Shown piece by piece: positions 20,396 to 40,457 of a stretch of DNA of 64,000 bases. Both the position numbers and the translations under genes were made by a program. Source of the DNA: Xanthomonas translucens pv. cerealis (GTDB lineage: Bacteria > Pseudomonadota > Gammaproteobacteria > Xanthomonadales > Xanthomonadaceae). The number at the start of each line of letters is the position of its first letter. The stretch's first letter is position 1. Location of the stretch: the NCBI RefSeq assembly GCF_006838285.1, contig NZ_CP038228.1:2170001-2234000 (forward strand). The letters are read 5' to 3'. The notes beneath the pieces were generated by a model. The model saw only the letters and a program-made list of their open reading frames with translations, was not told where the DNA came from and ran no database searches.

Positions 20396-21520
20396 TTATT
20401 GCGGCTCCGAGTCCCGGGTCCCGAGTCCCGAGTCCCGCGCCTCCAGACGCTCTCCGCTCTCCGCATCGAAGAAATGCAGCGCCTCGCCGCGCACCGCAAC
20501 GCGCAGGCGCTCGCCCAGGCCGGGCAGCGTGCGCGGCGCCACCCGCATCACCAGCGGCTGGCTGCCGTAGCTGAGATTGACGAAGATCTCGTTGCCGACC
20601 GGCTCGATCACCTCGATCGTGGCCTCGAACACGCCCTGCCCGTCCGCGCTGGGCTGCAGGTGCTCGGGGCGCACGCCGATCGCGATCGGCCGGCGCAGCC
20701 ATTGCGGCGCGACCTGGGCGCCGTGCAACGGCACGCGGCCGCCGTCGGCCAGCTGCAGCTGCAGGCCGTCGTCCTCGACCAACTGGCCCTGCAGCACGTT
20801 CATCGCCGGGCTGCCGAGGAAGCCGGCCACGAACAGGTTGGCCGGGCGGCCATACAGCGCCATCGGCGTATCGATCTGCTGGATCAGCCCGTCCTTGAGC
20901 ACCACGATGCGCTGGCCCAGGGTCATCGCCTCGACCTGATCGTGGGTCACGTAGATCATCGTGGTGCCGAGCTTGCGATGCAGCTGCGCGATCTCGGTGC
21001 GCACCGAATGGCGCAGCTTGGCATCCAGGTTCGACAGCGGCTCATCCAGCAGGAACACCGCCGGCTCGCGCACCAGCGCACGGCCCAGCGCCACGCGCTG
21101 GCGCTGGCCGCCGGACATCGCCCGCGGCAGCTTGTCCAACATCGGGGTCAGGCCCAGGGTCTCGGCGGCAGCGGCGACGCGGCGCGCGATGACCTCCTTG
21201 CTCTCGCCGCGCAGCTTCAGCCCGAACGCCAGGTTCTCGGCCACGGTCATGTGCGGATACAGCGCGTAGCTCTGGAACACCATCGCGATGTCGCGGTCCT
21301 TCGGCGCCACGTCGTTGACCAAGCGCTCGCCGATGCGCAGCTCACCGCCGCTGATCTCTTCCAGCCCCGCGATCATCCGCAGCAGGGTGGATTTGCCGCA
21401 GCCCGAGGGCCCGACCAGCACCATCAGTTCGCCGTCGGCCACTTCGAAGCTGGCCCCGTGCACGGCGACCTGGCCGTTGTCGTAGACCTTGCGGATGTTG
21501 TCCAGTTGTACGTTCGCCAT
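20396..21520 (-). CDS. ugpC: CUT1-type sugar ABC transporter ATPase (MalK/UgpC-like)
   Basis: A 374-aa ATPase starting MANVQLDNIRKVYDNGQ. Walker A is GPSGCGKST (about 37-45), signature MSGGQRQRVALGRAL, Walker B VFLLDEPLSNLDAKLR and switch His YVTHDQVEAM; a C-terminal TOBE/regulatory domain follows (about 240-360). This is the type that energises CUT1 importers such as MalEFG. No permease gene is adjacent; the only CUT1 permeases in the window (31.5-33.2 kb) lack an ATPase gene, so they probably pair. The last 15 or so residues (LEARDSGLGTRDSEPQ) are encoded by a 7-bp repeat array. A LacI-type operator lies 132 bp upstream of the start. Confidence 0.95.
   Translation of the reverse strand: MANVQLDNIRKVYDNGQVAVHGASFEVADGELMVLVGPSGCGKSTLLRMIAGLEEISGGELRIGERLVNDVAPKDRDIAMVFQSYALYPHMTVAENLAFGLKLRGESKEVIARRVAAAAETLGLTPMLDKLPRAMSGGQRQRVALGRALVREPAVFLLDEPLSNLDAKLRHSVRTEIAQLHRKLGTTMIYVTHDQVEAMTLGQRIVVLKDGLIQQIDTPMALYGRPANLFVAGFLGSPAMNVLQGQLVEDDGLQLQLADGGRVPLHGAQVAPQWLRRPIAIGVRPEHLQPSADGQGVFEATIEVIEPVGNEIFVNLSYGSQPLVMRVAPRTLPGLGERLRVAVRGEALHFFDAESGERLEARDSGLGTRDSEPQ
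20407..20437. repeat. 7-bp repeat array inside the 3' end of the ATPase gene
   Basis: About four units of GAGTCCC/GGGTCCC (GGGACTC on the coding strand) form the end of the reading frame and encode the tail DSGLGTRDSEP. Same repeat family as the intergenic arrays. Confidence 0.85.
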
Positions 21521-21932
21521 GGTGCGGTATCCGGTTTCCGGCAGGAGGAACGGGCTGCCGCCGGTCCCTCCCGAAGGCAGTGCATACGCATGCGGTTCGC
21601 ATCGTGCCAGCGGCACAGGCAACAACGAGAGCGCAATGCGGTATTCTGCCATGTAACCGTTTTCACGGGGCGACATCGACGCCTGGGAGGGCCCGCGATG
21701 CGAACCGCCAGCCGCCGCCGTCCGGGCGTGCGCCGAGCGCCGGATCTGATGCTTGCGGCATTAGACAGGTATGCTGGGAGGTCTGGCCGTCGTATTCATC
21801 TCCCGGATCGTGCGCTCCCGCTTAGCGGTCGTCATCGCTATGCCCCCGCGCGAGCTACAGGACGGATACAGGCCGCTTCCGCCGCTTGCTTACCAACGCC
21901 ACATCACTACTAGCCCCCAGGTGATCGACGAA
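21521..21932. other. divergent regulatory region ABC ATPase / zwf operon
   Basis: 412 bp without a gene. It separates the divergent ATPase gene and the zwf-glk-pgl-edd-eda operon and contains a 14-bp palindrome matching the lacI operator. The upstream frame of zwf extends into it but has no family similarity before the chosen start. Confidence 0.7.
21652..21665. promoter_or_regulatory. LacI-family operator (site 1)
   Basis: TGTAACCGTTTTCA, an imperfect palindrome with the central CG typical of LacI-family operators. It differs at one of 14 positions from the site in front of lacI at 40397 and at two from the reverse complement of the site at 36167. It could control the ATPase gene (left), the zwf operon (right) or both. 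Confidence 0.7.
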
Positions 21933-23396
21933 ATGTCACCCGAAACCGAAAACCGGTCGATGCACGATACCTTCCTGCTGTTTGGCGCTACCGGCGACCT
22001 GGCCCAGCGCTACCTGTTCCCGTCGCTGCTGCGCATGCTGGACGACGGCTTCCTGCCGGACGACTTCCGCATCCGCGCGCTGGCGCTATCGCCGCACGAC
22101 ACTGCCAAGTTCCACGAGATCCTCAAGCCGCGGCTGCAGGCGGCGGTGCCGCAGGTCAGCGCGGCGGTGATCCAGTCGCTGCTGGATCGCACCGACTACC
22201 GCTCGGTGGACCTGCGTAACGCCGAGTCGGTGGCCGACGCGGTGCGCGAGCTGGCCTCGCGCAAGTGCGTCAGCTACCTGGCGATCCCGCCGGGGCTGTA
22301 CATCAGCACCTGCCAGGGCCTGGCGCTGGGCGGCGCGCTGGCCGCGCCGAACCGGCTGATGCTGGAGAAGCCGATCGGCCACGACTCGGCCAGCGCGCGC
22401 GAGATCCTGCAGGCGATCGGCGCGCTGATCGACGAGGACCGCGTGTTCCGCCTGGACCACTACCTCGGCAAGGCGGCGGTGCAGAACCTGATCGCGCTGC
22501 GTTTCGGCAACACCCTGCTGGAAGCGGTGTGGAACCGCAACTACATCGAATCGGTGGAGATCCTGGTCGCCGAGAGCGAGGGCGTGGACGGCCGCGATGC
22601 CTACTACGCGCGTTCCGGCGCGCTGCGCGACATGGTCCAGAGCCACATCCTGCAGCTGCTGTGCCTGGTGGCGATGGAGCCGCCGGCCTCGTTGGAAGCG
22701 GACCGCATCCGCGACGAGAAGGTCAAGGTGCTGCGCGCGCTGCGCCCGCTGCAGGCCGCGCATGCCGCGCGCGACAGCGTGCGCGGGCGCTACACCGCCG
22801 GCACCATCAACGGCCAGCAGGCGCAGGCCTATCAGCCGCCGGAGGGCAGCGACGTGGAGACCTTCGTCGGCGTCACCGCCCACATCGACAACTGGCGCTG
22901 GGCCGGCGTGCCGTTCCGGCTGTGCACCGGCAAGCGCCTGGCCGAGCGCACAACGCGCATCGTGGTCACGCTCAAACCGGTCACCCACTGGCTGTTCGAG
23001 CGCCCCGACGCGCAGCACGTGGCGCCGAACCGGCTGACCTTCCAGTTGCAACCGCAAGAGAACATCGAACTGGGCCTGATGAGCAGCCTGGCCGGCCCGG
23101 AATGGGGCGCGCTGGAACTGCAGCCGCTGGAACTGGAACTGTCGATGCCGACCGGCCTGCATCGCCGCATCGCCTACGAGCGGTTGATGCTCGACGCGCT
23201 CAACGGCAACCATGCGCTGTTCGTGCGCGACGACGAAGTACGCGCGGCCTGGGCCTGGATCGACAGCGTCAGCGACGCATGGGCGCAGGCGCAACTGCCG
23301 CTGCTGCCCTACCCGGCCGGCAGTTGGGGACCGCAGGAAGCCGAGCGCTATGTCTGCGCCGACGACGCCAGCGCCGTGCAGCGGGACGCGCCATGA
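21933..23396 (+). CDS. zwf: glucose-6-phosphate 1-dehydrogenase
   Basis: Zwf oxidises glucose 6-phosphate to 6-phosphogluconolactone, feeding the Entner-Doudoroff and pentose phosphate routes. Nucleotide-binding FGATGDLAQRYLFPSL is at about residues 15-32. The catalytic motif RLDHYLGKAAVQN is near 170, with substrate-binding LEKPIGHD upstream. The start MSPETENRSMHDTF gives 487 aa, the usual length; MHDTF at 21960 is an alternative. It opens the operon zwf-glk-pgl-edd-eda and its stop overlaps the glk start (ATGA). Confidence 0.97.
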   Translation: MSPETENRSMHDTFLLFGATGDLAQRYLFPSLLRMLDDGFLPDDFRIRALALSPHDTAKFHEILKPRLQAAVPQVSAAVIQSLLDRTDYRSVDLRNAESVADAVRELASRKCVSYLAIPPGLYISTCQGLALGGALAAPNRLMLEKPIGHDSASAREILQAIGALIDEDRVFRLDHYLGKAAVQNLIALRFGNTLLEAVWNRNYIESVEILVAESEGVDGRDAYYARSGALRDMVQSHILQLLCLVAMEPPASLEADRIRDEKVKVLRALRPLQAAHAARDSVRGRYTAGTINGQQAQAYQPPEGSDVETFVGVTAHIDNWRWAGVPFRLCTGKRLAERTTRIVVTLKPVTHWLFERPDAQHVAPNRLTFQLQPQENIELGLMSSLAGPEWGALELQPLELELSMPTGLHRRIAYERLMLDALNGNHALFVRDDEVRAAWAWIDSVSDAWAQAQLPLLPYPAGSWGPQEAERYVCADDASAVQRDAP

Positions 23397-40396: not shown

Positions 40397-40410
40397 TGTA
40401 ATCGTTTTCA
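40397..40410. promoter_or_regulatory. LacI-family operator (site 3, autoregulatory)
   Basis: TGTAATCGTTTTCA lies 45 bp upstream of the lacI start and just downstream of the predicted lacI promoter, a position expected for repression. Confidence 0.7.
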
Positions 40411-40428
40411 GGACGAGTCAGAAGTGTT

Positions 40429-40457
40429 TTGTTATTTTTTCAATAAAAACTTTTCAA
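40429..40457 (-). promoter_or_regulatory. predicted sigma70 promoter of lacI
   Basis: Read on the minus strand: TTGAAA (40457-40452), a 17-bp spacer, then TAACAA (40434-40429). It lies in the most AT-rich stretch of the window. The operator at 40397-40410 would fall at about +12 to +25. Confidence 0.55.

What the first reader, a model, noticed from the sequence alone, without database searches (positions are those of the whole stretch)
20396..40457. A LacI regulon that appears to couple glucan capture to the Entner-Doudoroff operon
Three copies of one 14-bp palindrome (TGTAANCGWTTTCA; 12 of 14 positions invariant) lie at 40397 before lacI, at 36167 before the GH144-like-malEFG operon, and at 21652 between the CUT1 ATPase gene and zwf-glk-pgl-edd-eda. 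Central CG and palindromy fit LacI-family operators, and the lacI gene sits in the middle. If correct, one repressor controls outer-membrane uptake, glycosidases, ABC import, the detached ATPase and the whole route from glucose to pyruvate.
Basis: partly seen in the sequence, partly recalled or inferred. Interest (0 to 1): 0.7.

Follow-up and report, generated by a model that had tools for sequence, protein, structure and literature searches.

The report
Sugar-capture switch also guarding glucose breakdown
In many Xanthomonas and Stenotrophomonas bacteria nearly the same 14-letter DNA element lies in front of a regulator gene, of genes predicted to take up a bacterial sugar polymer (beta-1,2-glucan), and of the gene cluster that turns glucose into pyruvate, so one LacI-type regulator likely switches capture and burning of the sugar together.

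Summary
The three sites are real, exact and not chance (4 matches up to 2 mismatches, 0.23 expected). The relaxed consensus TGDAANCGNTTHCA occurs 6 times in the 4.6-Mb genome, 0 for the reversed control; 90 against 4 over ten genomes. A site lies before lacI in 60 of 62 named loci, before GH144 in 37 of 62, between ugpC and zwf in 17 of 30; shuffles gave no exact hit. In Stenotrophomonas the ED operon lies about 1 Mb from lacI yet keeps its site. In three Stenotrophomonas genomes only one LacI protein has the GalR-type helix VSVATVSR. The regulon is larger than claimed: GH3 glucosidases, DUF genes and aldolase fba, where the site lies 36-37 nt before the -10 hexamer in all 21 loci that have it (of 25). 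The glucan is most likely beta-1,2-glucan: the GH144 matches characterised XcSGL. Open: the 21652 site lies in a divergent region and could serve the ABC ATPase rather than zwf; no binding or expression data. The zwf site is absent in all six Pseudoxanthomonas loci read.

The parts
40397..40410 (.). operator at lacI (TGTAATCGTTTTCA)
   Evidence: a site before lacI in 60 of 62 named loci
36167..36180 (.). operator before GH144-malEFG (TGTAAGCGATTTCA)
   Evidence: a site before GH144 in 37 of 62 named loci
21652..21665 (.). operator between ugpC and zwf (TGTAACCGTTTTCA), adjoining TATTCTGCCA
   Evidence: 17 of 30 zwf loci; part of the best-conserved block before zwf
39339..40352 (-). LacI-family regulator, recognition helix VSVATVSR
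   Evidence: PF00356, PF13377 above cut-off
36259..39330 (-). TonB-dependent outer-membrane receptor
   Evidence: PF07715, PF00593 above cut-off
34528..36150 (-). GH144 lipoprotein-like enzyme, homologue (likely orthologue) of XcSGL/XCC2207, a beta-1,2-glucanase
   Evidence: PF10091; 8xul 1017 bits; PMC12102758 passages
33218..34531 (-). MalE-type sugar-binding protein
   Evidence: 3uor E 6e-222, then Lin1841 E 1e-64, next E 2e-33
32340..33404 (-). MalF-type permease (ORF; true start probably nearer 33220)
   Evidence: PF00528; UgpA-model match starts at residue 63
31507..32343 (-). MalG-type permease
   Evidence: PF00528
28080..31235 (-). F5/8-domain protein with an (alpha/alpha)6 glycosidase-like fold
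   Evidence: conserved neighbour
20396..21520 (-). UgpC/MalK-type CUT1 ATPase (detached)
   Evidence: NF008653 above cut-off
21933..23396 (+). zwf, glucose-6-phosphate dehydrogenase
   Evidence: TIGR00871 above cut-off
23393..24400 (+). glk, glucokinase
   Evidence: PF02685, 364 bits
24397..25116 (+). pgl, 6-phosphogluconolactonase
   Evidence: PF01182 above cut-off; TIGR01198 just below its cut-off
25245..27161 (+). edd, phosphogluconate dehydratase
   Evidence: TIGR01196 above cut-off
27207..27914 (+). eda, KDPG aldolase
   Evidence: TIGR01182 above cut-off

Best explanation
The 14-bp element lies before lacI, before the GH144-malEFG genes and between the ABC ATPase gene and zwf-glk-pgl-edd-eda, and it is likely the operator through which the adjacent GalR-like LacI protein would repress all of these genes until a sugar releases it. 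Shown by sequence: the sites, their conservation, the identical recognition helix in E. coli GalR, and further conserved sites at two GH3 genes, a DUF3829 gene and fba, with sites at DUF481 and DUF2628 genes in several genomes. Inferred: LacI binds them; bound near the start site it blocks transcription; beta-1,2-glucan is cut by GH144, taken in by receptor and ABC importer, split to glucose by GH3, phosphorylated by Glk and burned through the ED pathway; a free sugar (glucose or a short beta-1,2-glucoside) is the inducer, because the residues that I recall as sugar contacts in LacI are kept. At fba the site stands upstream of the promoter at fixed distance, so there the protein probably activates, as Cra does for gluconeogenic genes.
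For: Chance excluded: 90 sites against 4 for the reversed pattern over ten genomes; 20 shuffles of each set: no exact hit; at 1 mismatch at most 2. Site before lacI in 60 of 62 loci. zwf site in 17 of 30, kept in S. maltophilia D457, G096 and G131 with zwf and lacI 1.0-1.25 Mb apart; the six best-conserved 14-mers before zwf lie in the -10/operator block. GH3 bglX: 20 of 23 within 1 mismatch, 8-9 nt after TAGAAT in 18 of the 20. fba: 21 of 25 within 1 mismatch (13 exact), spacing 36-37 nt in 21 of 21. DUF3829: 9 of 9 of the closer homologues. GH3b: 19 of 19. One VSVATVSR protein among 9, 8 and 7 LacI proteins of G096, G163 and G160. E. coli GalR has the same helix, and TGGAATCGTTTACA lies 79 bp before galE. 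R198, N248, D276 align with the same residues in LacI and GalR; Cra lacks the N and the first D. GH144 homologue XcSGL hydrolyses beta-1,2-glucan (PMC12102758, passages); MalE's next relative in the PDB is Lin1841.
Against: No binding, expression or start-site data. zwf site missing in 13 of 30 loci: 6 Pseudoxanthomonas, X. chitinilytica, S. humi and 5 Luteimonas-type, all from genomes with lacI. Distance to zwf varies (161-354 bp), distance to ugpC less (about 89-133 bp); CAGAAT towards ugpC is invariant in 17 of 17, the hexamer towards zwf is TATTCT or CATTCT; each locus with the site has ugpC adjacent. GH144 site missing in 25 of 62. At fba the best-conserved 14-mers of the 400 bp lie at -320 to -330, not at the site (probably the end of the preceding gene). 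The own genome has a LacI paralogue (63% identical, same helix), and in the tree the lacI set of the 62 loci does not form a supported clade apart from it.
Confidence: 0.72

Rival explanations
1. The 21652 site serves only the divergent ATPase gene ugpC: the regulon is a local glucan-uptake regulon (receptor, enzymes, importer and its ATPase), and zwf-eda has another promoter.
For: Distance to ugpC steadier than to zwf; CAGAAT towards ugpC invariant in 17 of 17; sites found only where ugpC is adjacent (0 of 5 loci without ugpC in the 1.5-kb flank).
Against: The six best-conserved 14-mers of the 400 bp before zwf all lie in the operator block; fba, a central-metabolism gene, carries a conserved site of its own; one element between two divergent promoters usually affects both (general knowledge).
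Confidence: 0.2
2. The second LacI protein of the Xanthomonas genome (63% identical, C1:3784678-3785688) binds some or all sites.
For: Same recognition helix VSVATVSR.
Against: No match within 2 mismatches in the 3.1-kb locus of the own paralogue; the only 6-of-7 palindrome scored before it, CCATTGCGCAATGC, is of another type. The three Stenotrophomonas genomes examined have only one VSVATVSR protein yet carry zwf and fba sites. The paralogues form one clade, 11 of 11, support 1.0. Crosstalk in Xanthomonas alone is possible.
Confidence: 0.08
3. The ED operon is controlled by HexR or another regulator, and the LacI-type site is a relic.
For: HexR controls zwf-pgl, edd, eda and glk in other gammaproteobacteria (PMC5343134, passages).
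Against: No RpiR-type HTH (PF01418) match in the own genome, G101 or G153, though two Stenotrophomonas have one each; the site is kept exact in 17 loci across diverged flanks.
Confidence: 0.04

Closest known systems
GluR of Caulobacter (LacI family; PMC4052901, abstract and passages seen)
   Same: LacI-family regulator predicted to control zwf-pgl-edd-glk, thought to be close to beta-glucoside repressors (BglR1-3), glucose proposed as effector.
   Different: There the regulator gene lies just downstream of the ED operon and BglR paralogues serve the glucoside operons; here one protein appears to serve both a receptor/importer locus and the ED operon, plus fba. Orthology with GluR was not tested.
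E. coli GalR
   Same: Recognition helix VSVATVSR, and a site of the same consensus before galE; nearest of the three E. coli proteins compared, 35% identity.
   Different: GalR controls galactose genes; here glucan and central metabolism.
E. coli Cra (FruR)
   Same: LacI-family control of central metabolism with site position suggesting repression or activation.
   Different: 20% identity, different recognition helix; N and the first D of the sugar pocket are not kept in Cra.
HexR (RpiR family)
   Same: Controls the same ED genes in other gammaproteobacteria (PMC5343134, passages).
   Different: Another protein family; no PF01418 match in the own genome.
CUT loci of Xanthomonas campestris (PMC1790865, passages seen)
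   Same: TonB receptor, degradative enzyme, inner-membrane transporter and regulator together.
   Different: This one appears to reach out of the locus to central metabolism; its substrate is likely a bacterial beta-1,2-glucan, not a plant sugar.

Membership tests
LacI-family transcription factor | N-terminal LacI HTH and sugar-binding domain | tested here: met
   PF00356 53 bits, PF13377 129 bits, above cut-off
LacI-family transcription factor | near-palindromic operator with central CG, often also at its own gene | tested here: met
   60 of 62 lacI loci
LacI-family transcription factor | binding and release by an effector | not testable with these tools
   no experiment; R198, N248, D276 kept (their role in LacI is recalled)
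GalR-type DNA recognition | recognition helix VSVATVSR with TGTAA-type half-sites | tested here: met
   E. coli GalR has the helix; TGGAATCGTTTACA lies before galE, 1-mismatch sites in galE and before galR
Cra/FruR | Cra recognition helix and pocket | tested here: not met
   VSRTTASY against VSVATVSR; N and first D absent in Cra
GluR (Caulobacter) | control of zwf-pgl-edd-glk by a LacI-family protein | tested here: inconclusive
   site in 17 of 30 loci, but the direction is unsettled
GluR (Caulobacter) | orthology | not tested
   GluR sequence not compared
HexR | RpiR-type HTH protein | tested here: not met
   this protein is LacI-type; 0 PF01418 matches in G000, G101, G153; 1 each in two Stenotrophomonas, 3 and 2 in two Pseudoxanthomonas
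GH144 beta-1,2-glucanase | homology to a characterised member | tested here: met
   8xul/XCC2207, 1017 bits over 521 residues
CUT locus | TonB receptor, degradative enzyme, inner-membrane transporter and regulator adjacent | tested here: met
   order kept in most of the loci

The most novel reading that the evidence does not exclude
A GalR-type local repressor has become a Cra-like dual master switch of carbon metabolism in Xanthomonas and Stenotrophomonas: it represses beta-1,2-glucan capture, two GH3 glucosidases and the ED operon from start-site operators, and activates the gluconeogenic aldolase fba from an upstream operator, standing in for the missing HexR of Xanthomonas. Its signal would be sugar from beta-1,2-glucans, which these bacteria also make themselves, so the switch would read kin or self glucans as food.
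Probability: 0.35. Interest if true: 0.75.

Novelty: new variant of a known kind. Interest (0 to 1): 0.55.

Why it matters
In my text searches of an open-access library I found no described LacI-family regulator of the ED pathway in Xanthomonas or Stenotrophomonas (judged from listings and the passages named; the RegPrecise database could not be read). If true, one small regulon explains how these bacteria tie capture of a bacterial glucan to its combustion, gives a regulator for the ED genes of Xanthomonas genomes without an RpiR-type protein, points to a role in glucan use for three families of unknown function (DUF3829, DUF481, DUF2628), and suggests that an importer whose X. citri binding protein is listed only as a sugar-binding protein carries beta-1,2-glucan pieces. 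It would also be a regulon that reaches from a local locus into central metabolism, with different extents visible in living genera.

Tried and rejected
Rejected: chance. CRP-type site: not scanned for; set aside because the motif has a central CG and LacI-type half-sites (judged by eye). HexR. tpiA as a conserved target: a site was seen in S. maltophilia D457 (L277), none was read before the own tpiA; not pursued. Of the 8 one-mismatch places, L007, L011 and L012 were taken up; L005, L006, L008, L009 and L010 were read and not counted: L005 lies next to what looks by eye like a BlaI/MecR pair, L008 about 500 bp downstream of tpiA; none was tested further. Most two-mismatch hits were not read; those read are (fba). 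Other sites in relatives were not tested for conservation: a second TonB receptor (L268, L273, L280, L255), a Stenotrophomonas esterase-like gene (L256, L270), an F5/8-domain gene (L271, L275, L278), an endonuclease/phosphatase-like gene (L274) and several without a clear gene (L247, L252, L259, L260, L264).

Natural loss: G111 keeps only a 25-residue lacI-like stretch before its TonB receptor and has no zwf site, but its lacI-bearing relatives lack the zwf site too, so this decides nothing.

Rows left out: 50 of the 62 loci L088-L149 were searched for zwf; 36 matched, 30 loci were read, 6 were not fetched. bglX: L220 left out (start not aligned), L222-L226 left out (paralogues; L222 has a site, L223-L226 none). 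DUF3829: 13 of 29 genomes have a match; L236-L243 (weaker or tandem copies) left out of the 9. fba: 25 of 26 genomes matched. GH3b: 19 of 26. Genomes and overlap (for example G023 and G162 give the same contig and place), so those counts must not be added. G096, G131 and G068 are unnamed; I take their group g3 as Stenotrophomonas because G023 of g3 coincides with S. geniculata G162.

Structure of the F5/8 protein: predicted and compared; many families tie, no family assigned. Not used: the search for homologous proteins, viral and phage collections, structure prediction of LacI.
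Full report
Observation. The three sites are at the stated places and differ only at positions 6 and 9. They are far beyond chance in the window (4 matches at up to 2 mismatches, 0.23 expected) and in the genome: with the relaxed consensus TGDAANCGNTTHCA the 4.62-Mb genome has 6 sites and 0 for the pattern read backwards; ten genomes together have 90 against 4. All six own sites lie before or across a gene start: lacI, GH144, ugpC/zwf, a DUF3829 lipoprotein-like gene (C1:1282912), a GH3 protein with an N-terminal endonuclease/phosphatase domain (C1:1798407, across its ATG) and a DUF481 protein (C1:4532451, 43 bp before the ORF).

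Gene starts. By domain matches and sequence, zwf starts at 21933, ugpC at 21520, GH144 at 36150 and lacI at 40352. The GH144 start agrees with PMC12102758, which also uses the second methionine of XcSGL (passages).

Conservation. Of 80 named loci fetched with a LacI profile, 62 (L088-L149) were scored: a site to the relaxed consensus lies within 400 bp of lacI in 60 (not in L141, L143) and of GH144 in 37; 20 shuffles of each set gave no exact hit and at most 2 within 1 mismatch. The gene order lacI-TonB receptor-GH144-malEFG-F5/8 protein is kept in most of them. For zwf, 36 of 50 genomes had the orthologue, 30 loci were read, 17 have the exact site: 6 Xanthomonas, [Pseudomonas] boreopolis, 9 Stenotrophomonas and Luteimonas huabeiensis. 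The 13 without are X. chitinilytica, S. humi, 6 Pseudoxanthomonas and 5 Luteimonas-type genomes. In S. maltophilia D457 (zwf 1.90 Mb, lacI 3.15 Mb), G096 (1.80 and 2.78 Mb) and G131 (1.52 and 2.72 Mb) the two loci are 1.0 to 1.25 Mb apart, and the site is kept. The flanks are strongly diverged; the six best-conserved 14-mers of the 400 bp before zwf all belong to the block TATTCTGCCATGTAACCGTTTTCAC of the reference L168.

Direction. TATTCT or CATTCT ends 4 nt before the operator in the zwf direction in 17 of 17 loci, but the same block read towards ugpC gives CAGAAT 3 nt after it, invariant in 17 of 17; the distance to ugpC (about 89-133 bp) is steadier than that to zwf (161-354 bp), and none of the 5 loci without adjacent ugpC has the site. 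I therefore take it as a shared divergent control region; ATPase-only control is the strongest rival. In 15 of the 17 a second operator-like element, TGCAAnCGAATrCA with up to 1 mismatch, lies 30-31 bp towards ugpC; it is absent in the window, in L168 and in L. huabeiensis.

Wider regulon. GH3 bglX (C1:4337616): a site within 1 mismatch in 20 of 23 loci (9 exact); it follows TAGAAT by 8-9 nt in 18 of these, the two exceptions being the Lysobacter soli and Pseudoxanthomonas wuyuanensis loci; the three without a site are Pseudoxanthomonas, which keep TAGAAT. DUF3829: 9 of 9 of the closer homologues. Second GH3 (GH3b): 19 of 19 homologues have the site, overlapping the start codon in those read. 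fba: 21 of 25 (13 exact), the four without all Pseudoxanthomonas; the distance from site to the TATAAT/TATACT hexamer is 36-37 nt in 21 of 21. The own fba site is TGGAAACGGTTGCA. In the 400 bp before fba the best-conserved 14-mers lie further up (-320 to -330), probably the end of the preceding gene. DUF2628: sites in relatives (clear in L251 and L257) and a weaker one (TTTAACCGATTACA) 18 bp before the own gene. DUF481: sites in four genomes, the own, G141, G151 and G153.

Which protein. The own genome has 10 LacI-type genes; two carry the recognition helix VSVATVSR, this lacI and a 63% paralogue. G096, S. maltophilia D457 (G163) and S. rhizophila (G160) have 9, 8 and 7 LacI genes with only one VSVATVSR each. 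E. coli GalR carries the same helix; TGGAATCGTTTACA lies 79 bp before galE, and 1-mismatch sites lie in galE and 15 bp before galR (that these are the known gal operators is recalled). In a tree of 113 proteins the paralogues form one clade, 11 of 11, support 1.0; the lacI set of the 62 loci does not form a supported clade apart from them (its common ancestor holds 112 of 113, support 0.36), while the Xanthomonas-Stenotrophomonas lacI genes do group (40 leaves, 0.81).

What it serves. The GH144 matches XCC2207 (8xul) with 1017 bits; that enzyme is described as having narrow specificity for beta-1,2-glucans (PMC12102758, passages). MalE matches the X. citri protein 3uor and next the Listeria protein Lin1841 (E 1e-64 against 2e-33 for the next); that Lin1841 binds beta-1,2-glucooligosaccharides and that Lin1840, among the bglX matches, is a sophorose-type glucosidase is recalled. 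X. campestris makes a cyclic beta-1,2-glucan with one alpha-1,6 bond (PMC11228985, start of abstract and passages). So the likely path is GH144 cutting, receptor and importer uptake, GH3 release of glucose, then Glk and the ED enzymes.

Mode of action (inferred). At bglX, DUF3829 and zwf the site lies just after a -10-like hexamer, where a bound LacI protein would block initiation; at fba it lies at about -55 from the predicted start (my estimate from the -10 hexamer), fixed in phase, where it would more likely activate. Ravcheev and colleagues inferred dual action of PckR from site position in the same way (PMC4052901, passages). The effector is probably a free sugar, since R198, N248 and D276 align with the residues of LacI that I recall as sugar contacts, while Cra lacks the N and the first D.

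Evolution. lacI with a site at its own gene is the constant core. bglX, fba and zwf sites are shared by most of the Xanthomonas and Stenotrophomonas loci read and missing from nearly all the Pseudoxanthomonas loci read; L. huabeiensis has the zwf block and Lysobacter soli a bglX site, so these sites may be old and lost in some lineages, or gained more than once. S. humi and X. chitinilytica have bglX and fba sites but no zwf site. This is not resolved.

Prior work. PMC4052901 does not contain a word beginning Xanthomon- in its main text. Text searches for LacI with Xanthomonas or Stenotrophomonas and the ED pathway gave no report of this regulon in their listings. The RegPrecise database itself was not available.

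Noticed in passing
[not shown]
   Followed up: partly
G000 C1:9751 and C1:4616290 (L028, L029): Two LacI-family genes, identical in the stretch printed, about 15.6 kb apart across the contig ends if it is circular: a duplication or an assembly overlap.
   Followed up: no
L151: A record labelled Bacillus subtilis SK7B5 carries a Stenotrophomonas-like lacI-GH144-malEFG locus: probably a contaminated or mislabelled assembly.
   Followed up: no
G000 C1:1798406 (L386): 993-aa protein: N-terminal endonuclease/exonuclease/phosphatase domain fused to GH3, with the operator across its start codon.
   Followed up: partly
window 36220-36243: GC-rich hairpin (ccgccccggaagattccggggcgg) between the TonB receptor and GH144; may set different transcript levels.
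   Followed up: no
G160 C4:195171, G163 C1:446893: The only RpiR-type HTH match of these two Stenotrophomonas genomes lies about 6 kb from bglX.
   Followed up: no
L015 (G000 C1:71834): TGCAATCGATTGCA between a TonB receptor-like and a transporter-like gene (by eye), about 2.4 kb from another LacI gene: perhaps the operator of a different local regulator.
   Followed up: no
L170-L178, L180-L185, between ugpC and zwf: Second operator-like element TGCAAnCGAATrCA 30-31 bp from the first in 15 of 17 loci with the first site; absent in the window.
   Followed up: partly
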